Below are positions 1,488 to 34,076 of a stretch of 49,232 nucleotides of DNA, piece after piece. Positions within the stretch are counted from its first letter, which is position 1; each line of letters starts with the position of its first letter. The notes below the pieces were generated by a model. The model worked only from the letters and a program-made list of their open reading frames with translations. It ran no database searches and had not been told where the DNA came from. Origin of the DNA: Eubacteriales bacterium (GTDB lineage: Bacteria > Bacillota > Clostridia > Lachnospirales > Lachnospiraceae); the NCBI GenBank assembly GCA_030539055.1, contig JAUNSV010000010.1:1-49232 (forward strand), written 5' to 3'. The position numbers and the translations under genes were made by a program.

Positions 1488-3173
1488 TTAATCCAAAATT
1501 TCTGGATAATCATTTAAATATCTTTTTAACATATTTAATTCAAATTCTGTCATCCCACCATTTGTGTAAAACCATTCATTAATATCATTTTCAGTATGTC
1601 CTTTTAACTTGTTTTTATTTTCTATAATAAATTTATTTAAATTATCATTATTTTCAATATATATTTTTTCAATTTGTTCTTTTGTGAAATCCTTTCCATA
1701 ATCTTTCAAGTTATTTCTAATACTTTCGACTGTATCTGCATAATCTTTTCGTTTATAATTATCTCTATCATCACTATTTATTATATTTTTGCATACTATT
1801 GTTTCATATTCATAAGTATTTGTTTCATCAATTATAAATACAGTAGATACATCTATATCTTTATACTTATTTAAATTAATATTGTATCTTTCTAATAAAT
1901 CTTTTGCTTGTTTTTCTCTTCTTTCTATTCTTCTTTCCCGTTCATTTATCAGTTGATTATAAAGTCTATTATTACCATTTGTACTTTCCAATACTAAAAA
2001 AGCATTTTTGTTATATGTATTTATATCTTTTATTATTAATTTTCTATTTTTTGCACTACCTATTTCATCTTCATCAATAAATGGTAAAAATGTTTTATAA
2101 TATTTATTAAATGCATTTTTTGATATTTCTTTTATATTTTCTATATGTAAAATATTATATCCTATATATTTATTTTTTGTTATTTCTTTTAATTTGTTTA
2201 TTAATTCTTCACTATTTAATTCTGTAATTTTATTATTTACATCATATGAAGTGCATATTGAAAATATTGGATTGTTTTTACTATCAAAACCCACACAAAT
2301 TCCCAATGCATAACCATCATAATCATAAACACCTATATCCCCAATTTCTACATCTTCTATATCACATTCATTGAAATTTAAAATATTGTTTTCTTGTATG
2401 TTATAAAAGTCATCACTAATAAAACCAAAACAATTTCTTAATATATTAAAAATCCAATGATTTTCACTAAAAAAAATACTTTGGCTTATATAATTATAAC
2501 TTATAGCATCTTGAATATTATCAATTTTTTCTATATTTTTATTTTCATATAATTCGTTTTTATTATTGCAAATACTTAAAAAATTATTTGCTACTAAATC
2601 TATTGGAATATCATACAAGTTCTCTTTACATTCATATACACCTATTTCTATGTTCTTCCCATAAAACGATTCATTTCTTTTCTTGTCATCTATAAAACCA
2701 ATTTTACGATATAAAACCGTTCCTGTCCAATTTAATACATATTCTTGAAATCCTTTTTTTGTCATTCTTTCTTTGGGGACATCCATATAATCAATTCCTA
2801 CATAAGGTATTCCTGTAGTAATATAATTATACTTTTCAAATCCTCTTAATACTTCTCCTGTATCTTTATCTCTATAGAATGGATACCATCTTGTACCTTC
2901 ATAAGTATACTCATTTGGTGATAAATTTACTTTTCTATCTAAATATAAATTAATTCCACCAATATATTCAACATTTCTATAGTTTTCTTTTCTGCCTTTT
3001 TTAAAATACTGCCCATTATTCTTATATTCATTTTTAAATTCATATTGTTTTTCATTATTAGATTTTATATCTATGGATTTTTTTATGTTAAAAACTAAAG
3101 CAAAAATACTGACTAATATTACTATTGATAACATTGATATAAATATGTATATTTTTTTGAATTTTTCGTTCAT
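1488..3173 (-). CDS. Gene-B family protein, copy B'': anchored extracellular protein with NlpC/CHAP-like signature
   Basis: This 561-aa protein belongs to a family seen three times in this window and not otherwise recognised. Residues about 8-29 are a membrane anchor. A conserved N-terminal block (about 65-155) holds VEYIGGI, a GTRWYPFYRDKDTGE-type motif and WTGTVL. A second block has RNCFG (Cys248), GDIGVY (278-283), GICVGFD (291-297) and LHIE (His343); the GD...GxxVG pattern resembles NlpC/P60 and CHAP amidases, but the usual His before the GxxxG strand is Leu290. The C-terminal 150 residues are charged and helical. Its ATG overlaps the stop of the upstream gene A' by one base (TAATG), with GGAG ten bases upstream, so the pair is translationally coupled. 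Function is unknown; a wall-active or adhesive role is only inference. Confidence 0.75.
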   Translation of the reverse strand: MNEKFKKIYIFISMLSIVILVSIFALVFNIKKSIDIKSNNEKQYEFKNEYKNNGQYFKKGRKENYRNVEYIGGINLYLDRKVNLSPNEYTYEGTRWYPFYRDKDTGEVLRGFEKYNYITTGIPYVGIDYMDVPKERMTKKGFQEYVLNWTGTVLYRKIGFIDDKKRNESFYGKNIEIGVYECKENLYDIPIDLVANNFLSICNNKNELYENKNIEKIDNIQDAISYNYISQSIFFSENHWIFNILRNCFGFISDDFYNIQENNILNFNECDIEDVEIGDIGVYDYDGYALGICVGFDSKNNPIFSICTSYDVNNKITELNSEELINKLKEITKNKYIGYNILHIENIKEISKNAFNKYYKTFLPFIDEDEIGSAKNRKLIIKDINTYNKNAFLVLESTNGNNRLYNQLINERERRIERREKQAKDLLERYNINLNKYKDIDVSTVFIIDETNTYEYETIVCKNIINSDDRDNYKRKDYADTVESIRNNLKDYGKDFTKEQIEKIYIENNDNLNKFIIENKNKLKGHTENDINEWFYTNGGMTEFELNMLKRYLNDYPEILD

Positions 3174-3940
3174 TATTCAAAATCTCCTTTTACACCATTT
3201 TCGCCATATATTCTTGTAAAATCTTCCCATCTCTCACATTCATATTCTCCATCTACTCTTGTACAATCTATTAATCCATATTCACAAAAAATAAACTTAT
3301 CTCCAAAAGAATTTGTTATACTATCTATTTGTATTGTCTCACCAACCACCTCTTTATAATGAATTAAATTTACTAACTGGTTAAGTACTATATTTAATTT
3401 TTCTTTTAATTTACTTACCACAAAAGAAACTGGGTCTATTATTAATCCATAATAATCATATCTATCCTTTGAAGCTTTCCATAAACCTTTAGAAAATCCA
3501 CTTGTTATTGGGTCATACTTTGATACAATATCTGTAAAACCATTAACTGCATAATCTATTACATCTTCTGCTAATCCCTTTAAATCCAATACATATAACC
3601 CTACATTTATACTACCTTGAATAAATTTTGTTACAAGTGCTTTTATTTGTGAATTATTAGAACCAGTTAAACTCATATAATATATGAGTGCTGTTTCTCT
3701 CGGAGCATACCAAATATCTTTATAACACATATTTTTGTCAACTGGATAAATTGAATTTTCTTTAGCTTTCCAAGTAGCACCATAAACATATCCAGAGCTG
3801 TTAAAGCCATTATATGTATGTTGTTCCATGCATAAAATAATTGGTGTGTTTGGTACTTTATCTCCTATATAATGAAGTCTAATTTCATACTCGTTTTCAC
3901 CATCTTGAATAATACTCTGATGTAATATCTTCATTTGCAT
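3173..3940 (-). CDS. Gene-A family protein, copy A', unknown function
   Basis: This 255-aa protein has no signal peptide or clear membrane segment. It is a paralogue of the gene at 7207-7977: both share an N-terminal strand pair around IIQ(N/D)G-NEY, a central (W)-K-(N/E)-N-(T/S)-IYP motif, and a C-terminal ending of the form RW-x(8)-G-x-G-x-KG-x-F. Compared with that paralogue it lacks about 17 N-terminal residues, and its start codon lies inside the remnant of gene B' (3897-5259), without a good ribosome site. I infer that a deletion joined the end of B' to the beginning of A', so A' may have lost its original start. It is immediately upstream of, and one base overlapping, gene B''. No enzymatic motif was recognised. 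Confidence 0.65.
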   Translation of the reverse strand: MQMKILHQSIIQDGENEYEIRLHYIGDKVPNTPIILCMEQHTYNGFNSSGYVYGATWKAKENSIYPVDKNMCYKDIWYAPRETALIYYMSLTGSNNSQIKALVTKFIQGSINVGLYVLDLKGLAEDVIDYAVNGFTDIVSKYDPITSGFSKGLWKASKDRYDYYGLIIDPVSFVVSKLKEKLNIVLNQLVNLIHYKEVVGETIQIDSITNSFGDKFIFCEYGLIDCTRVDGEYECERWEDFTRIYGENGVKGDFE

Positions 3941-5259
3941 AGCTTTCTATATCAATATAATATCTATTTCGTATTTCATTTGCATTTTTCTCTCTATTAT
4001 TCAGTCTCTCTTTTCTTTCTAGCATAAATTGATCAAATAGATTACATCCTATCCATTCGTTTTTAACTTTCATTTGTTTATATAAGATTTGGCTGTTATA
4101 TATATCAATATTATCAATTATTATGCTTTCATTTATTTCGTTAATCAATGGTAAATTTGTACTATAATATTTTTCAAATACATTTTTTACACTATTACTA
4201 ATGTTTTCAGTGTACAATACATTATACCCTTTATATTCACATAATGTATCACTCATATCTAAATGCCCTATATATTCTTCCATTTTTTTAGCTCATTAAT
4301 ATTTTGATTAATATTCAATGAAGAGCATATCGTAAATATAGGATTTTTCTTTTTATCATATCCTATACACATTCCCATACAATTAATACCATCATCTTTT
4401 TTATATATACCAATATCTCCTATTGAACAATCCTTGATGTCAACTTCCATAAATTAATTTTATTATTGTACACTATATCATAAAAATCATCTGAAATATA
4501 TCCAATAGTATTTCTAAGGATATATAGAATCCAATCATTTTCAGAAAAAAATGTTATATCTTCATTCCCCATTTTATAACTACCAAAATTTATTGCCTTA
4601 ACTATATCATCAATATTGTAGGTTTCACTTCTTTTAATATATTTTGTATTAAACCAAATGTCTGAAATGAGTAAATCTATTGGTTTATCATAATCATAGC
4701 TTTCACAATAGTAAATACCTTTTGAATTATCATATGAAGATTTATCACTTAGTCCATACTGTCCAAATCTTGAATAATTTCCATATAATACTGATCCAGT
4801 CCACTTTTTTACATAATCACTAAAACCTTTTTGGGTTTTTCTATCATTTGGTGTGTCATAATGATCTAAACCCACGAATGGTATCCCTGCCGTTATATAA
4901 TTTATTCTTTCTAATCCTCTCAATATTTCACTTGTGTCTTTATCTCTATAAAATGGATACCATCTTACACCATTGTATCTTTCTTCTTTTGATGATATAT
5001 TGTATTCTCTTTGTAGATTATAATTAATCCCACCTATATATTCTACTTTGCGATAATTGGGAATCTCTTGAGTATAAGTAGATAAATTCCCACTATTAAT
5101 ATAATTTCCTTTATTTATATAACTATTTGTTGATTTTATGTTGCTTTGAGATTTAATATCTATATTAAAAAATTTATTTTTTAATGAAAAAAGAATTATT
5201 AATAATACTATGGTAATTATACATATAACAACTATTTTTATATTTTTATTCTTAGACAT
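3897..5259 (-). pseudogene. Decayed gene-B copy (B'), two frameshifts and a deleted C-terminus
   Basis: Three consecutive reading frames (5259-4420, 4450-4268 and 4283-3897) together align with the single ORFs of copies B and B''. The first break is one missing base near 4450, where NNKIN-L should continue into EVDIKDC. The second is in a seven-base T run (A on the coding strand) at 4283-4289. The C-terminal 130-200 residues present in the other copies are absent; the frame ends at 3897 inside gene A'. The start at 5259 has GGAG eight bases upstream; the longer upstream Met at 5307 lacks one. The anchor, the VEYIGGI and RWYPFYRDKDTSE motifs and GDIGIY are intact, but the conserved Cys of RNCFG is Thr and the conserved His of LHIE is Tyr. 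A sequencing error could explain one base-run shift but not the missing C-terminus. Confidence 0.8.
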
Positions 5260-5326
5260 ATCTTTATCTCCATTTTTCTTTAACACCATACTAGCAATAT
5301 ACATCAATTGTTCTTAAATACAAATT

Positions 5327-7198
5327 TTATTTTTCATCTAATATATTCCTATTTTCATTTAAAAATCTCTTAATAAATCTCAATTCAAGTTCTGAAATTC
5401 CACCAATCGAATAATACCAGTTTCTCAATTCTTCATCATTTATATTCTTTAGTTTATCCTTATTTTTTATTACTAACTCTTTTAATTCATCGTATGCATT
5501 TTTATATGCGATTTCAAGTTGTTCTTGAGAAAAATCATCTCCATAGTTTTTAAATTTTTCAATCATTTCTACTTGTTTTTCTTCATTAGTTTTTCTCGTA
5601 TATCTTTGCAAATATGATTTTAGTATTTTATTTACAAATCCTTGTCCAAATTTTAAATACAAATTATCAAAATTATTATTTAATATATCATTAGAATATT
5701 TATCAATAATATCATTTATTAAGTCAATATTTTCTTTATCTAATAACTGTTCATTTATTGACTCATCATCTAAATTATTATAATAATCACTTAAATTAAA
5801 AACTTTATTTGTATTTATGCCAATATTCTTCTCTCTTTCAATATTATTAGAATTAGTATTTTGTTTATACTCTCCTAAATATTTTTGATATTGATAAGTA
5901 TTTGTTTCATTTATCATATACATAGTTGAAATATCTTTGATTTGATATTCAGACAAATCTATTTGGTTATGTTGTCTAATTGTTTCTGCAAGTTTTTCAC
6001 GATTCTGTATTCTATTTATTCTTTCAGATAATATTTTTTCATTCAAATCTTCATTGCCACTAATATATTTTTCTTTATCAATATAGTATTCGATTCTCTC
6101 ATTATATAATGATATATCTTTTATTATGAAATTTTTTTTATTTGTATTATTATCAATATCAAATGGAAGATATGTTCGATAATAACTATTAAATACATTA
6201 TTTGTTTCTGCATTTAATTTTTCTATATGCAATAAATTATATCCTTCTTCAATATCCTTATATTTTTTTGCTTCATCTAAGATTTTATATATATTTTCAG
6301 AAGCTGATATTGAAAATATAGGGTTAAAATTAACATCATAGCCAACACAAATGCCTATATTATATCCAGTTTTTTCATCTCCATATACTCCAATATCACC
6401 AATAACAACTTCAGTAATATTTATTTCATCAAAACAAATTCTATTATTATTATTTAATTCATAAAAATTATCACCAATATACCCAAAACAATTTCTTAAT
6501 ATATTAAGAATCCATTCATTTTCTGACAATTCTATTGTTGGTAATTTATAATTCTTACTTTTCAAATCTTCGAGATTATATATATCATAACAATTTGAAT
6601 ATTCTTTCCCGTTACCCCATAAATTATCAGCAACTAAATCAATCGGCATATCATACAAATTATCTTTACATTCATATATTCCATTATATATATTCTTATA
6701 TTTGTCAAAATGTGTTTCAGGAGAATTAATTCTATTAGTTCTTGATAATACACAGCCAGTCCAATTTAATACATAATTTTGAAAACCTTTTTTAGTTTTT
6801 CTTTCATTTGGTATTTCTAATTTATCAAGTCCAATATATGGCACTCCTACATTTATAAAATTATAAATCTCAAGTCCACGCAAAATCTCTCCAGTATTTT
6901 TATCTCTAAAAAAAGAATACCATCGTTCACCAACAAATTTCTCTTCATATTTAGAAATTCCAAATGGTCTATTTAAATTTATCTTTATACCACCTATATA
7001 TTCAACTTCTCTATACGATTTATGTTTATTATCATCCACATATTTTTCAAAATTAATGTATTTAGCACTATCAATATTTATATTTTCATTTTCGCTTAAC
7101 ATTACACCATTATGACTAAGATTAAAATACATAACAAGAATAATAATTGTCAAAATAAAAATGCTAATGATAATCTTTATTTTATTAATTAATTTCAT
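5327..7198 (-). CDS. Gene-B family protein, copy B: anchored extracellular protein with NlpC/CHAP-like signature
   Basis: This 623-aa protein is the longest intact copy of the B family. Residues about 7-26 are a membrane anchor. Block one (about 62-152) contains VEYIGGI, GERWYSFFRDKNTGE, PYIGLD and WTGCVL. Block two contains RNCFG (Cys237), GDIGVY (267-272), GICVGYD (282-288), NPIFSIS and LLHIE (His324). The C-terminal part (about 390-623) is charged, predicted helical and about 60 residues longer than in B''. The GD...GICVG arrangement looks like an NlpC/P60 or CHAP fold whose usual catalytic His is replaced by Ile281; this is my inference from motifs only. The start has AGGTGG four bases upstream, and the gene lies 8 bp after gene A, so A and B form a coupled pair. 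Confidence 0.75.
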   Translation of the reverse strand: MKLINKIKIIISIFILTIIILVMYFNLSHNGVMLSENENINIDSAKYINFEKYVDDNKHKSYREVEYIGGIKINLNRPFGISKYEEKFVGERWYSFFRDKNTGEILRGLEIYNFINVGVPYIGLDKLEIPNERKTKKGFQNYVLNWTGCVLSRTNRINSPETHFDKYKNIYNGIYECKDNLYDMPIDLVADNLWGNGKEYSNCYDIYNLEDLKSKNYKLPTIELSENEWILNILRNCFGYIGDNFYELNNNNRICFDEINITEVVIGDIGVYGDEKTGYNIGICVGYDVNFNPIFSISASENIYKILDEAKKYKDIEEGYNLLHIEKLNAETNNVFNSYYRTYLPFDIDNNTNKKNFIIKDISLYNERIEYYIDKEKYISGNEDLNEKILSERINRIQNREKLAETIRQHNQIDLSEYQIKDISTMYMINETNTYQYQKYLGEYKQNTNSNNIEREKNIGINTNKVFNLSDYYNNLDDESINEQLLDKENIDLINDIIDKYSNDILNNNFDNLYLKFGQGFVNKILKSYLQRYTRKTNEEKQVEMIEKFKNYGDDFSQEQLEIAYKNAYDELKELVIKNKDKLKNINDEELRNWYYSIGGISELELRFIKRFLNENRNILDEK

Positions 7199-8404: not shown

Positions 8405-8419
8405 AAAAAAGTAATTTAA

Positions 8420-8493
8420 CGCACGTGAGAGGATTTGAACCCCCGACCCCTTGGTCCGTAGCCAAGTGCTCTATCCAGCTGAGCTACACGCGC
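8420..8493 (-). tRNA. tRNA-Arg(ACG)
   Basis: The minus strand folds as a 74-nt tRNA: acceptor GCGCGTG pairs with CACGTGC (one G-U), D-arm contains AGCTCAGCTGGATAGAGC, anticodon stem CTTGG/CCAAG encloses loop CTACGGA with anticodon ACG, and the T-loop is TTCAAAT. Discriminator is G; CCA is not encoded. ACG (read as ICG) decodes CGU/CGC/CGA arginine codons. Confidence 0.95.
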
Positions 8494-8502
8494 ATAAAAA
8501 GT

Positions 8503-8543: not shown

Positions 8544-10025
8544 TTACTCGACTTTAGATAAGGCTTTTCCTGTGTCATCAATTTTGTATTTCCCAACTGC
8601 TGTTGTGATTTCTTTCGTTTTTCCCGCATCTGCTTTTGCTAAGGATCCATCAGCTTGCAAAAAGTATGCTCCTGTAGAAGTATTAATCCAAGTATTGTAT
8701 TTTAATTCTCCTGTAGATAAATCAAAATAGTATGTTGAACCATTAGTGAATTCTCTCCAACCTGTAATCATATATCCACTAGCATCTACACAAAACTTAT
8801 TGCCTTTATAATCTATCCATTCATTTACAGCTTTTGTACCATCATTTTTAATATAATACCAACCTGTATTATCCTTACTCCATATACCACTTGATGCTAA
8901 TGTAGTATTTCCTGAATCAATTACTTTGATAGCATAATTTAACAATGCCTTAGATAAATTATAATGATCCCCATTTGATTTTAAAACTACTGTTGCAATG
9001 TCTTGATCTTTATATTTATACATCACAGCTAAGGTGTATTTTGCTTTTGTAGTATATCCTTGCTTTCCAAAACTACATCTTTGATCATAAAATGATGAAG
9101 TATTATTTGATATTTTCATATTTGATTCTATAAATAAAGAATTTCTATGTGCTGTCTTTGGCAATGTATATGATGTCTTTCTCAATATATTTACTATGTT
9201 TTCATCTTTTGAAATTTTGCTTAATATAATAGCCATATCATAAGCTGATGTATATTGCTTATCATCATTTAAACCAGAGGGATTTGTAAAATTTGTATTA
9301 TTACAACCCCATGATTTTACTGTTTCATTCATTAATGTTACAAAATTATTTATTGAACCACTTACTTTCTCTGCTGCAATATTTGCACAATCACATGCAG
9401 ATTTCAATAGCATTGCATGCAATAAATTTTCTACACTAATTGTATCTCCCTCTTGCAATAAAATATTATTAGCTCCACTCTCCAAATTTGATATTGCACT
9501 TTTTGATACACTTACTATATCACTTAATTTTGCATTTTTTAATAACAAATATGAAGTTACTAAATTTGTTAAAGAAGCTGGTGCTAATTGTGTATTCTCA
9601 TCTTTTGATACATAATATTGATTAGTAGATAAATTTACTACTATTGCACTTTCTGATGTAATACTTGGTTTCCCATCTAATTGAACATTTGCATTTGTTA
9701 ATTGAATTAATTCTGTATTAGTTGTAGTTTGGTTATTTGTAGTTGTAGTAGTTGCATTTTGAGTAGTAGTATTATTATTTGTTATTGATACTTCATTAGG
9801 ACCTGTAGAAATAGATGTACCTGTAGAACCAATAGCTGCACCTGGCCCCAAATTATTGTTTTGAGTAATTTCTTTTCCATATATTCTTTGCGAAACTGTA
9901 CCAGAGCTACTTCCTGTATCTCCACCTGGTGTAGTTGCAATGACTATATTAGAAGCAAAAATATTTGAAATAAATAAGATTAAAGATAATGATATACTAA
10001 TTAAAATTTTAAATAAGTTTCTCAT
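8544..10025 (-). CDS. Secreted S11 DD-carboxypeptidase homologue, probably inactive, with choline-binding-type repeats
   Basis: The 493-aa protein has a signal peptide (about 1-25), a Thr/Asn-rich linker (about 35-108), a peptidase S11 (DacA-like) domain (about 115-370) and a C-terminal set of aromatic/Gly wall-binding repeats (about 380-480, with GWYYIKNDG and GYMITGW). The fold-level landmarks of S11 are present (PASLT, AYDMA, GYTTKAKYTL), but all three active-site motifs are altered: SxxK reads SLTN (151-154, Lys to Asn), SxN reads SAC (209-211) and KTG reads KQG (321-323). The changes are clear codons in an intact frame, so this looks like a pseudoenzyme that may bind peptidoglycan or regulate another factor. 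The start overlaps ftsH by 17 bases and has AAGGAGG upstream, so expression is coupled to ftsH. Confidence 0.85.
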   Translation of the reverse strand: MRNLFKILISISLSLILFISNIFASNIVIATTPGGDTGSSSGTVSQRIYGKEITQNNNLGPGAAIGSTGTSISTGPNEVSITNNNTTTQNATTTTTNNQTTTNTELIQLTNANVQLDGKPSITSESAIVVNLSTNQYYVSKDENTQLAPASLTNLVTSYLLLKNAKLSDIVSVSKSAISNLESGANNILLQEGDTISVENLLHAMLLKSACDCANIAAEKVSGSINNFVTLMNETVKSWGCNNTNFTNPSGLNDDKQYTSAYDMAIILSKISKDENIVNILRKTSYTLPKTAHRNSLFIESNMKISNNTSSFYDQRCSFGKQGYTTKAKYTLAVMYKYKDQDIATVVLKSNGDHYNLSKALLNYAIKVIDSGNTTLASSGIWSKDNTGWYYIKNDGTKAVNEWIDYKGNKFCVDASGYMITGWREFTNGSTYYFDLSTGELKYNTWINTSTGAYFLQADGSLAKADAGKTKEITTAVGKYKIDDTGKALSKVE

Positions 10026-12042
10026 TACTCTCCTCCTTAGTTTGTGCTACTATATCCTCTTTTTTATCATCACTACTAGAATTTACTCTATCCTTTTTTT
10101 CTGAAAAATCTAATCCTGTAATCTCAGATAAAATGTTCATAAATTCTTTTCCAGTAATTGTTTCTTTTTGAATTAAATAATCAGATATTCTGTCTAATGC
10201 TTCTCTGTTATTATTAAGAATTTCTTTTGCTTTATCATGTGCCTCTTCAAGCATCTTTTTTACTTCTTCATCAACTAGTGTTGCGGTATTATCGCCACAA
10301 TTCATAAGTGTATCATCGCCTAAGTACATATTCTTTTTTGTTTCTAACCCCATTAAACCAAATTTTGTACTCATTCCATATTGTGTAATCATTGCTCTTG
10401 CAAGTTTAGTAGCTTCTTCTATATCATTTGCAGCTCCTGTAGTTACTGTATCAAATACGATTTCTTCTGCTGCTCTTCCCGATAAAAAAGTAATAAGCCT
10501 TGCTTCCAATTCTTTTTTTGTATTTAAGTATTTTTCTTCCTCTGGTGTTTGCAATACATATCCAAGAGCTCCCATAGTCCGAGGAACTATAGTAATTTTT
10601 TGTACTGGTTCTGAATGTTTTAACATAGCTGATACTAAAGCATGACCTACTTCATGATATGATACAATTCTTCTTTCTTCTTTAGAAAGCACTCTATCTT
10701 TTTTTTCTTTTCCTACTAATACTACTTCAACTGCTTCAAATAAGTCTAATTGTGATACTTCTTTTCTTGAATGCTTTGCAGCATTGATTGCAGCTTCATT
10801 TATCATATTTGCTAAATCTGCTCCGACAGCACCAGATGTAGATAAAGCTATTTCATCAAAATCTACTGATTTGTCCATCTTGACATCTTTTGAATGCACT
10901 TTTAATATTGCTACTCTACCTTTTAGATCTGGTTTTTCTACTATTATTCTTCTATCAAATCTACCTGGCCGAAGCAATGCTTGATCTAATACTTCTGGTC
11001 TATTTGTAGCAGCCATTACCATAATACCTTTATTAACATCAAATCCATCCATTTCAGATAAAAGTTGATTTAGTGTTTGCTCTCTCTCTGAATCTGCACC
11101 TGAGGCTGACCTTGCATCCCTTGATCTACCAATAGCATCTATTTCATCTATAAAAACAATACAAGGTGAGGCACTTTGTGCTTGTTTAAATAAATCTCTT
11201 ACTCTTGAGGCTCCAACTCCTGCATACATTTCTACAAAATCTGAACCTGTAAGTGAAAAGAAAGGTACTTTTGCTTCTCCAGCTACTGCTTTTGCTAGTA
11301 GAGTTTTTCCTGTACCTGGGGGTCCAACTAATAATGCACCCTTTGGCAATTTGGCACCTACTACTGTATATTTTTGGGGATTATGTAAAAAATCAACAAT
11401 TTCTACTAATGATTCTTTTGCTTCATCCTCTCCTGCTACATCATTAAATGTAACTCCAGTTTCTTTTTGCATATATCTTTTTGCATTAGATTTCCCAATG
11501 CCCATTATTCCACCACCCATTGCTCCACCCATACGCTTAGAAAGCATATTGAATAAGAACATTATGAAAATAAAAGGCACTATCCAACCGATTATTATTT
11601 CTTGCAAGAATGAACTTTTTACACCAACTATTTCAATTCCTTTTTGATTTAAAAGTCTATTCATTAACTCTGGATCTTCTACCTTAGTTACTCTGCATCG
11701 CATAGATGTAGCATTAACTTGTTTCATTACTTCATCAATCAAGCTTTTGCTTTCAGTAGTTTCTGTAGGTAAACCTTGAGATTCGTTCATTTTCTCATTA
11801 TCTAAATATACATAAATATCTTCGCCAATCTCTACTCTTTTTACTACTCCTTGATCCACATATTCTACAAATTGACTATAAGTAATATCTTTCACATTAT
11901 TAGAAAAAAGTGAGCTTGAAAACATTTGCCAAATAAAAGCTGTAAGTACTACAGCAATTGCTATTCCAAATAGTGTTTGTCCTATATTACCATTACCTTT
12001 ATTTTGACCTTGGTTTGTATTCTTATTATTGTTGTTGTCCAT
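10009..12042 (-). CDS. ftsH: ATP-dependent zinc metalloprotease FtsH
   Basis: FtsH is a membrane-bound hexameric AAA protease that degrades misfolded and regulatory membrane proteins. The 677-aa protein shows the standard order: membrane segment about 24-42, extracytoplasmic domain about 45-145, membrane segment about 148-166, Walker A GPPGTGKT (240-247), Walker B IVFIDE (295-300), the second region of homology around 346-362 (ATNRPEVLD, RPGRFDR), and the zinc-binding HEVGH (463-467; HEAGH is more usual). The C-terminal tail (about 650-677) is acidic and Ser-rich. The gene sits third in an operon of extracytoplasmic proteins and overlaps the DacA-like gene downstream. Some Gram-positive ftsH genes neighbour tilS/hpt; here neither is present. 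Confidence 0.97.
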   Translation of the reverse strand: MDNNNNKNTNQGQNKGNGNIGQTLFGIAIAVVLTAFIWQMFSSSLFSNNVKDITYSQFVEYVDQGVVKRVEIGEDIYVYLDNEKMNESQGLPTETTESKSLIDEVMKQVNATSMRCRVTKVEDPELMNRLLNQKGIEIVGVKSSFLQEIIIGWIVPFIFIMFLFNMLSKRMGGAMGGGIMGIGKSNAKRYMQKETGVTFNDVAGEDEAKESLVEIVDFLHNPQKYTVVGAKLPKGALLVGPPGTGKTLLAKAVAGEAKVPFFSLTGSDFVEMYAGVGASRVRDLFKQAQSASPCIVFIDEIDAIGRSRDARSASGADSEREQTLNQLLSEMDGFDVNKGIMVMAATNRPEVLDQALLRPGRFDRRIIVEKPDLKGRVAILKVHSKDVKMDKSVDFDEIALSTSGAVGADLANMINEAAINAAKHSRKEVSQLDLFEAVEVVLVGKEKKDRVLSKEERRIVSYHEVGHALVSAMLKHSEPVQKITIVPRTMGALGYVLQTPEEEKYLNTKKELEARLITFLSGRAAEEIVFDTVTTGAANDIEEATKLARAMITQYGMSTKFGLMGLETKKNMYLGDDTLMNCGDNTATLVDEEVKKMLEEAHDKAKEILNNNREALDRISDYLIQKETITGKEFMNILSEITGLDFSEKKDRVNSSSDDKKEDIVAQTKEESNEKLI

Positions 12043-12055
12043 TAATTATCCTTTT

Positions 12056-12808
12056 TTAATAGTATAAAGCATCTTTTATATAAAGCTTTCTATAGTTTGA
12101 ACCATAAGGTATATCTTCATATAGTTGTAAAGAAAAAGTTTTGCATCCTGAAATATCTACATTTATAGTTTCATAAATATAATTATTGAAATCTGTAAAT
12201 CTTTCAATATCTACTCCATTGTCATCTGTTACTACTAAAGTATATGTAGCATATGGATCATAATCACTCTTGTATGAAAGCGATAATCTTGCACTAAAAC
12301 TATTGTATCCAGGATTTGTAAATAAAGCAAAAGATTGATCTTGATTAAAACTCATAATGTTCCCAGTCCAAACTGTGCCATCTTTTATTTTTGCACTGTC
12401 TTTGTTTTTACTTACTCCATCCGAATAATAAATCCATTTTTTTAGCATTTTATGATCACTTGTATTATTTGATGGCACTGGTGTTGGTGTAGGTGATGGT
12501 GTTGGATTCACTCCAACAATTTTTGTTTGCACTATTCCATTTACAACCCATTCTCCTGATGCATTTATGATATATCCATCTGGAGTTATTGTATTTGTTA
12601 AAATATATCCATCTTCCATAAAGAAATAGCATTTTGCTACTCCAGAATTGTTTGCATCTATCCAATGCCAACCGCTTCTTGTAAAAGGTCCACCAACATA
12701 CTCTTGATATTTCCAACCTGTTGAATCATTTAACCAAGTACCCGCAAATGACATTATACATATTGCAAATATAAAAAATGTTGATATTAATATTTTCATT
12801 TTTTTCAT
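12056..12808 (-). CDS. Secreted wall-binding protein with NPCBM-like C-terminal domain
   Basis: The 250-aa protein has a signal peptide (about 1-22). Residues about 23-95 hold choline-binding-type wall repeats (GTWLNDSTGWKYQ, GWHWIDAN, YFFMEDGYI, SGEWVVNG). A Pro-Thr-Ser linker follows (about 100-115). The last 130 residues form a beta-rich domain with SGCKTFSLQLYED near its end, resembling the NPCBM carbohydrate-binding family seen in glycosidases; that assignment is by pattern only. The start has AAGGGG about nine bases upstream. It lies between a lipoprotein gene (22-bp gap) and ftsH (13-bp gap), sharing wall-binding repeats with the last gene of the same operon, which suggests both reside at the cell wall. 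Confidence 0.8.
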   Translation of the reverse strand: MKKMKILISTFFIFAICIMSFAGTWLNDSTGWKYQEYVGGPFTRSGWHWIDANNSGVAKCYFFMEDGYILTNTITPDGYIINASGEWVVNGIVQTKIVGVNPTPSPTPTPVPSNNTSDHKMLKKWIYYSDGVSKNKDSAKIKDGTVWTGNIMSFNQDQSFALFTNPGYNSFSARLSLSYKSDYDPYATYTLVVTDDNGVDIERFTDFNNYIYETINVDISGCKTFSLQLYEDIPYGSNYRKLYIKDALYY

Positions 12809-33065: not shown

Positions 33066-34076
33066 TTACATCTTTTTAATCAATTTTTTTACATCAAATA
33101 GATAATATAAGTAATAAGCAAAAATAACTATACTAATAAAGAAAATTACAAAAATCATAATATTTTGAAGTATTGAATTAGTGTGATTTGTTTTTAAAGT
33201 ATCATTGTTTAAAAGAACTTCACTTTGTAATAAATAGTCATTATTATCATTATATATTTTACTTATAATTTCTTTAGAAATATTATAAATTTTTTCTTCT
33301 GTATCATAACCAAATGCAAGTACAAGACTGTCTTTATCTCTTTCTCTTAAAAAGCTAGCTAAAGTATATTTTGATAAAGTTGTATGTCCATTCTTCCCAG
33401 CTATTACTTTTTCATCATATTCGCTTGCTCCATGCTTCATCATCTTGTTGCCAACAGATATAGTTACTCCATTTGGATAAAAAGAAGAGTATGGAAGAAA
33501 ATAATTTGTATTTTCAAATATTTTCAAAAAATCTTCATTCTCATAAGCATATTTACATATGATAGAAAAATCGTAAGCTGTAGTATAATGATTATTATCA
33601 AATATCCCTGTTGGATTAGTAAAATGTGTATTATATAAATTTAGCATTTTTACTTTGTTATTCATTAATTTTACAAAAGAATCAATACTTCCAGTAGTAT
33701 AAATTGATAAAGCATATGTTGCATCATTTGCTGATTTAAAAAGTAGTGCATATAGCAAATCTTTTATTGTATATTTATCGCCAATTTGCAAATGTATTTG
33801 TGAAGAATCATCGCTAAAGTTTGATATCATTCTTTCATCTATTATTATTTCATCATTTAAATTGCAATTTTCTAGTACAATAATGCTTGATAATATTTTT
33901 GTAAGACTTGCAGGATATATTTTTTTATCTTCATTATTTGCTTCTAATACTTTTTTTGTTTTTAAATTGATTGCAATATAAGAAGTATTATTTGATGCAT
34001 AAATAGGTGCACTAATACAAATAATTGTTAAAATGGTAAGCATTATTGTATATATTTTTTTATTATTATATTTCAT
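33066..34076 (-). CDS. D-alanyl-D-alanine carboxypeptidase family protein (peptidase S11), membrane-anchored
   Basis: The 336-aa protein has a signal peptide (about 1-27), an S11 domain (about 30-260) and a C-terminal membrane segment (about 302-324). The nucleophile motif SLTK (57-60) and SAN (115-117) are intact, but the KTG box reads KNG (228-230), followed by HTTLSKYTL. It should trim pentapeptides in peptidoglycan, with the KNG change possibly affecting activity. It is a paralogue of 8544-10025, whose motifs are all changed. The start overlaps the ogg stop by one base (TAATG). Confidence 0.9.
   Translation of the reverse strand: MKYNNKKIYTIMLTILTIICISAPIYASNNTSYIAINLKTKKVLEANNEDKKIYPASLTKILSSIIVLENCNLNDEIIIDERMISNFSDDSSQIHLQIGDKYTIKDLLYALLFKSANDATYALSIYTTGSIDSFVKLMNNKVKMLNLYNTHFTNPTGIFDNNHYTTAYDFSIICKYAYENEDFLKIFENTNYFLPYSSFYPNGVTISVGNKMMKHGASEYDEKVIAGKNGHTTLSKYTLASFLRERDKDSLVLAFGYDTEEKIYNISKEIISKIYNDNNDYLLQSEVLLNNDTLKTNHTNSILQNIMIFVIFFISIVIFAYYLYYLFDVKKLIKKM

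What the first reader, a model, noticed from the sequence alone, without database searches (positions are those of the whole stretch)
8544..10025. Pseudoenzyme DD-carboxypeptidase: all three active-site motifs changed in an intact gene
SxxK is SLTN, SxN is SAC and KTG is KQG, while the fold landmarks, signal peptide and wall-binding repeats are kept in a full frame. Loss of the general base Lys alone should abolish S11 activity. Retention with wall anchoring points to a binding or signalling role rather than decay.
Basis: partly seen in the sequence, partly recalled or inferred. Interest (0 to 1): 0.75.

Follow-up and report, generated by a model that had tools for sequence, protein, structure and literature searches.

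The report
Conserved dead cell-wall enzyme beside ftsH
A cell-wall-trimming enzyme that lost its catalytic residues has been kept as an open gene, in the same place beside the ftsH gene, in most sequenced species of one bacterial genus, so it probably now works by binding rather than by cutting.

Summary
In detail: window 8544-10025(-) is an intact 493-aa S11-fold gene with SLTN / SAC / KQG in place of SxxK / SxN / KTG. It is not a decaying singleton. Eleven of the 13 genomes held of this genus carry the domain, all 11 with all three motifs changed: Lys lost 11/11, Ser replaced by Ala 5/11, SxN Asn->Cys 11/11, KTG Thr->Met/Leu/Gln 11/11. In all 11 the frame overlaps the end of ftsH. The S11 domain is under purifying selection (omega 0.07-0.12 in the six closest pairs, median 0.21 over 55). 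A second genus holds the probable catalytic relative: in 24 of 25 genomes SxxK and KTG are intact but SxN is SxC, 23 of 24 after ftsH. Without motif columns these 24 and the 11 form one clade (100/99). Likely order of loss: first N->C, as in the K15 transpeptidase, then Lys and Thr; the window's other S11 gene, a very long branch, blurs this. Best reading: an envelope-bound pseudo-DD-peptidase acting as binding scaffold or regulator. No ligand, partner or structure was shown.

The parts
8544..10025 (-). pseudo-DD-peptidase gene (class A), 493 aa
9951..10025 (-). signal peptide, residues 1-25 (by eye, ends ...FAS)
   Evidence: no predictor run
9672..9950 (-). low-complexity N-terminal region with G-P motifs, residues 26-118
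   Evidence: with the second linker the least conserved part
8925..9671 (-). S11-fold domain, residues 119-367
9564..9575 (-). SxxK position: SLTN (residues 151-154)
9393..9401 (-). SxN position: SAC (residues 209-211)
9057..9065 (-). KTG position: KQG (residues 321-323)
8547..8888 (-). C-terminal choline-binding-like repeat region, residues 380-493; at E<=1e-8 it matches once per genome in 11 of 13 genomes (the class A gene), plus one weak second match in G001
10009..12042 (-). ftsH; its 3' end overlaps the pseudoenzyme start by 17 nt
33066..34076 (-). second S11 gene of the window with SLTK / SAN / KNG, for comparison

Best explanation
The gene encodes an exported, envelope-associated pseudoenzyme of the S11 DD-peptidase fold. 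It descends from a ftsH-linked S11 enzyme with the same layout (signal peptide, GP-rich linker, S11 domain, C-terminal repeats) that probably already had SxC in place of SxN; in this genus the SxxK Lys and the KTG Thr, and in five species the Ser itself, were then lost. It most likely works without catalysis: the C-terminal repeats hold it at the wall and the S11 fold acts as a binding platform that recruits or regulates other envelope proteins, much as dead LytM domains control amidases. Shown: motif loss, its fixation in the 11 genomes read, orthology by gene order and (less firmly) by tree, purifying selection. Inferred: absence of activity, wall location, and the scaffold or regulator role.
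For: Motif table, 11 of 11 class A altered at all three motifs. Presence in 11 of 13 genomes of the genus. Frame overlapping the end of ftsH in 11 of 11, and an overlapping exported-protein frame there in G004 too. omega 0.07-0.12 in the S11 domain and 0.06-0.10 in the C-terminal domain for the six closest pairs. Window copy keeps 26 of 27 highly conserved non-motif columns but 13 of 75 variable ones. SxC proteins in 24 of 25 genomes of a second genus, 23 of 24 after ftsH against 0 of 51 other S11 loci; one clade with class A at 100/99 with motif columns removed. K15 DD-transpeptidase shows SGC at the SxN place.
Against: No assay, no partner, no structure: the prediction server was full at all nine tries. 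The six closest pairs come from only four genomes; over all 55 pairs the median omega of the S11 domain is 0.21. For the window copy synonymous sites are near saturation (pS 0.53-0.69) and pN/pS in S11 is 0.58-0.75, so dN/dS does not show constraint there. Its repeats fall below Pfam's cut-off. Trees that include the window's other S11 gene L003 (SLTK/SAN/KNG, end branch 1.6-2.5) place it with class A and B: 95/78, 91/94, and beside the window copy at 51/0; the one SxC row (L087) fell in an unresolved group and not beside class A. In one search A, B, the 24 SxC rows and L003 are together one side at 100/100, and A+B+SxC without L003 is not rejected (p-AU 0.521). If L003 truly belonged there, the order 'SxC first' would need a reversal. 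G011 shows neither ftsH (E<=1e-100) nor class A; I read this as an assembly gap, unproved. The G004 frame has only a weak match to class A (blastp best E 0.002, phmmer none).
Confidence: 0.6

Rival explanations
1. It is still an enzyme: the invariant cysteine at the SxN place, with a second cysteine beside it, replaced the serine as nucleophile.
For: Cys at column 92 in 11 of 11 class A; a second Cys in or next to the motif in 11 of 11 (column 91 in 10, column 94 in the window copy).
Against: The same Cys is in 24 of 24 SxC relatives that still have Ser and Lys, and K15 carries it too, so it looks ancestral. Lys is lost and Thr of KTG becomes Met/Leu/Gln. Class B, which groups inside class A, has Val at this column in 9 of 9.
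Confidence: 0.08
2. The S11 domain is only a spacer; the functional part is the C-terminal repeat region, and the S11 fold is kept merely for stability and length.
For: The C-terminal domain is the most conserved part (mean pairwise identity 0.72 against 0.66 for S11; window copy 0.59-0.72 against 0.43-0.50).
Against: omega of the S11 domain is nearly as low as that of the repeats (closest pairs 0.07-0.12 and 0.06-0.10; medians 0.21 and 0.19); class A has its own invariant residues at several positions (Y19, D93, Q138, K151); class B kept the S11 domain and lacks the repeats, with omega 0.09-0.12 over the whole gene in its six closest pairs (median of 35 pairs 0.29).
Confidence: 0.2
3. A pseudogene on its way out, still open by chance.
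For: Long window branch (0.5-0.98) and shorter N-terminal region.
Against: Open frame in 11 of 11 genomes, low omega in close pairs, conserved gene order, 26 of 27 conserved columns kept in the window copy.
Confidence: 0.04

Closest known systems
S11 DD-peptidases (B. subtilis-type DacB 3mfd, E. coli PBP5)
   Same: Sequence similarity over the domain, E 1.1e-26 to 3mfd, 1e-17 to PBP5.
   Different: All three catalytic motifs changed; the residues for cleavage and penicillin acylation are gone.
Streptomyces K15 DD-transpeptidase (1skf, 1es5)
   Same: Cys in place of Asn in the second motif, SGC (alignment to 1es5); S11-related.
   Different: K15 keeps SxxK and KTG and is active (recalled, from no call); class A does not keep them.
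ftsH-linked SxC S11 proteins of genus g142 (24 genomes; L087, L115-L137)
   Same: Same upstream gene (23 of 24), same layout (L136 lacks the repeats), one clade with class A.
   Different: SxxK and KTG intact in 24 of 24, so presumably still enzymes.
Catalytically dead LytM factors (EnvC, NlpD, DipM)
   Same: Wall-enzyme fold that lost catalysis and regulates other wall enzymes (start of the DipM abstract, PMC10336132, seen in the listing; EnvC and NlpD partly recalled).
   Different: Different fold (M23), Gram-negative systems; regulation by class A is not shown.

Membership tests
Peptidase family S11 (by sequence) | Pfam PF00768 above its cut-off | tested here: met
   153.4 bits against 27.6
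Active S11 DD-carboxypeptidase | SxxK nucleophile and general base | tested here: not met
   SLTN; Lys absent in 11 of 11 orthologues read
Active S11 DD-carboxypeptidase | SxN in the second motif | tested here: not met
   SAC; the SxC alternative seen in K15 is met
Active S11 DD-carboxypeptidase | KTG (or KSG / HTG, recalled) | tested here: not met
   KQG; Thr replaced by Met/Leu/Gln in 11 of 11
Active S11 DD-carboxypeptidase | penicillin binding or D-Ala release | not testable with these tools
   needs purified protein
Choline-binding-repeat surface protein | Pfam choline-binding repeats above cut-off | tested here: inconclusive
   below cut-off in the window copy, above in L037 and L087
Pseudoenzyme under selection | catalytic loss shared by a clade with purifying selection | tested here: met
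   placing of L003 unsure
Dead LytM-type regulator (by way of working) | binds and regulates a wall enzyme | not testable with these tools
   analogy only

The most novel reading that the evidence does not exclude
The co-encoded FtsH and wall-bound pseudo-DD-peptidase form one envelope quality-control module: the dead S11 domain, no longer able to cut, reads the state of the wall or of a wall enzyme and passes it to FtsH, so that catalysis was lost because the sensing or tethering function of the ancestral enzyme was the one under selection.
Probability: 0.1. Interest if true: 0.75.

Novelty: new variant of a known kind. Interest (0 to 1): 0.55.

Why it matters
DD-carboxypeptidases are classic penicillin-binding proteins whose purpose in cells is often unclear (general knowledge). 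Here one genus has discarded the chemistry and kept the protein, while another genus keeps the probable enzyme at the same locus. That pair could separate the catalytic from the non-catalytic role of an S11 protein and suggests an order for the loss of active-site residues. In my searches of the open library (listings only) I saw no described clade of S11 pseudoenzymes; most subscription papers are not in it, and searches listed only part of their hits.

Tried and rejected
Structure prediction with alignment A3 was tried nine times; the machine was full each time, so there is no model, no fold search and no statement about pocket shape. A scan of viral contigs with the class A alignment found no relative. 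NCBIfam gave 10 matches for the window protein, all far below their cut-offs. Paper searches for S11 or PBP pseudoenzymes: none found listed, 3, 20 of 1,823, 15 of 22; none of the titles listed was on point. Read in passages only: PMC6435803, PMC4604126, PMC12073871; the last two did not mention the K15 Cys in the passages shown. The Cys as a new nucleophile was rejected because it looks ancestral. Selection on the retained Ser was rejected because 5 of 11 have Ala. A relocated Lys at column 151 was judged a one-residue helix shift by eye and not pursued; H->Q at column 138 also occurs in intact-motif congeners (by eye), so it is no sign of loss.

Rows dropped: in the tree, repeats L085, L086, L096 and L114, the four lipoprotein-type S11 (L002, L060, L061, L062) and L088; in the tree, class B, L003, the other intact-motif congeners, the earlier comparison set except L015, and L085, L086, L088, L096, L114; one search put class B and L003 back. 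In one search the two S11 genes of L088 were printed under one name; the first, read by eye, has SITK/SAN/KTG.

Full report
Observation. The window frame 8544-10025 (-) is an intact gene of 493 codons with a strong S11 match. All three catalytic motifs are changed: SLTN, SAC, KQG. The same genome has two further S11 genes with SLTK/SAN/KNG and SLTK/SGN/KTG, so the cell has not lost S11 enzymes in general.

Orthologues. The collection holds 13 genomes of this genus. A profile of the class A S11 domain finds it in 11 of 13 (sequences). In all 11 the Lys of SxxK is gone (Asn in 10, Thr in 1), the Ser is Ser in 6 and Ala in 5, the Asn of SxN is Cys in 11, the Thr of KTG is Met 7, Leu 3, Gln 1, and the Gly of KTG stays. 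In a twelfth genome, G004, the end of ftsH is overlapped by a 118-residue frame with a signal-peptide-like start and a GPG motif, cut off by the contig end; its match to class A N-termini is weak (blastp best E 0.002, phmmer none), so I take it as the orthologue by position only, and its motifs are unseen. In the thirteenth, G011, neither ftsH (at E 1e-100) nor class A was found.

Gene order. In the window the start codon lies 17 nt inside the end of ftsH. In the ten other class A genomes the frames also overlap; eight have an ATG overlapping by 8 nt. Outside the genus I read the region of the best ftsH match in 19 of the 48 other genomes: none has an S11 gene just after it in the stretch read, 11 of 19 have a uvrC-like gene directly after it (named by eye), and in one (G060) an S11 gene lies before ftsH. 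Further ftsH copies of those genomes were not read.

Selection. For the six closest pairs, which come from four genomes, omega (Nei-Gojobori, own script) is 0.07-0.12 in the S11 domain, 0.06-0.10 in the C-terminal domain and 0.25-0.39 in the N-terminal region; over all 55 pairs the medians are 0.21, 0.19 and 0.65, with dS often high. Whole genes of the intact-motif paralogues give 0.14-0.25 in their six closest pairs, median 0.31 of 15. Pairs with the window copy are near saturation and say little. As a second test, the window copy agrees with the majority residue in 26 of 27 non-motif columns that are at least 97% conserved in 59 other sequences, 12 of 18 at 90-97%, 26 of 61 at 70-90%, 25 of 54 at 50-70% and 13 of 75 below. 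That is not the pattern of drift.

Class B. Nine genomes carry a second S11-like protein in frames of 392-460 residues without the C-terminal repeats, with G at the Ser place, N at the Lys place, V at the SxN Asn and A at the KTG Gly in 9 of 9. It is one clade (100/100). The window copy branches before it (100/98 and 100/99), and it joins L006 and L011 of class A at 88/61 and 98/80, on a long branch. It lies beside or near a glucose-6-phosphate isomerase-like gene (named by eye) in 7 of 9 loci (7 of 8; not in L045).

Origin. A scan of 300 genomes of the family returned 30 best-match loci whose motifs I read: 28 besides class A, of which 27 have Asn in the second motif and one, from genome G153, has SAC with SMTK and KTG intact. 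In the genus of G153, 24 of 25 genomes have such a protein. All 24 have SxxK, SAC and KTG; L136 lacks the C-terminal repeats. 23 of 24 lie directly after ftsH; of 51 other S11 loci none shows ftsH in the flanks held, about 1.5 kb or less on each side. In a tree without the motif columns, the 24 SxC proteins and the 11 class A proteins form one clade (100/99) and class A is one clade (100/100) nested among the SxC proteins (92/91 at the nearest fork), with a long stem of 0.91 changes per column. The program warned of long branches, of the odd composition of the window row, and that the bootstrap had not settled.

Results against this. In an earlier tree with one SxC row only, that row fell in an unresolved group, not beside class A, while the window's other S11 gene L003 joined class A and B (91/94; also 95/78). 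With all 24 SxC rows, class B and L003 together, A, B, SxC and L003 form one side at 100/100; L003, on a branch of 2.5, sits beside the window copy at 51/0; and A+B+SxC without L003 is not rejected (p-AU 0.521, likelihood slightly higher). I read L003 as drawn there by its long branch. The shared place after ftsH supports orthology of class A and the SxC proteins independently of the tree. The most economical order is then: ftsH-linked S11 enzyme, N->C in the second motif, loss of Lys and Thr, variable loss of Ser. An S11-related enzyme with Cys in this place is known: the K15 DD-transpeptidase reads SGC in the alignment; its activity is recalled, not tested.

What changed. Twelve positions that are near-invariant in both the SxC proteins and the wider family (motif positions included) differ in all class A proteins, and some have become invariant in class A (Y19, D93, Q138, K151; W120 in 10 of 11). 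Class A has two cysteines in or next to the second motif in 11 of 11. This speaks for a rebuilt rather than an eroded site, but no structure could be made.

How it works. Loss of the general base, of the nucleophile in five species and of the KTG Thr (a substrate-binding residue by general knowledge of these enzymes) argues against both cutting and penicillin binding. Export, C-terminal repeats and selection on the S11 domain argue for a non-catalytic role at the wall. I favour a scaffold or regulator of other envelope proteins: about 0.6 for the whole statement, about 0.95 for 'conserved, catalytically dead by motif', which is inference until assayed. A link to FtsH function is suggested only by gene order.

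Noticed in passing
window 33066-34076 (-): Second S11 gene with SLTK, SAN but KNG in the third motif; KNG also occurs in L021 of another genus. Its place in the trees is unsure.
   Followed up: partly
L045-L053 (class B): More degenerate S11 paralogue without repeats, beside or near a glucose-6-phosphate isomerase-like gene in 7 of 9 loci.
   Followed up: partly
L087, L115-L137: In 24 of 25 genomes of a genus, SxC in place of SxN in an S11 protein, 23 of 24 after ftsH; possibly a K15-like transpeptidase.
   Followed up: yes
N-terminal regions of class A, class B, L063 and several of L115-L137: Gly-Pro-[Gly/Thr/Ala] motifs after the signal peptide, shared by active-looking and dead S11 proteins (by eye); role unknown.
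   Followed up: no
window 1488-7198 (-): Paralogous membrane-anchored or exported frames (VEYIGGI ... FYRDKDT ... LRG); the three scanned had no Pfam match at 0.001. Frames 3897-4283 and 4420-5307 look by eye like two pieces of one broken copy.
   Followed up: no
window 12056-12808 (-): Small exported protein with a choline-binding repeat upstream of ftsH (28.5 bits against 27).
   Followed up: no
window 8419-8494 (-): tRNA-Arg (acg) just downstream of the pseudoenzyme gene, where ten congeners have a PEP-carboxykinase-like gene (named by eye).
   Followed up: no
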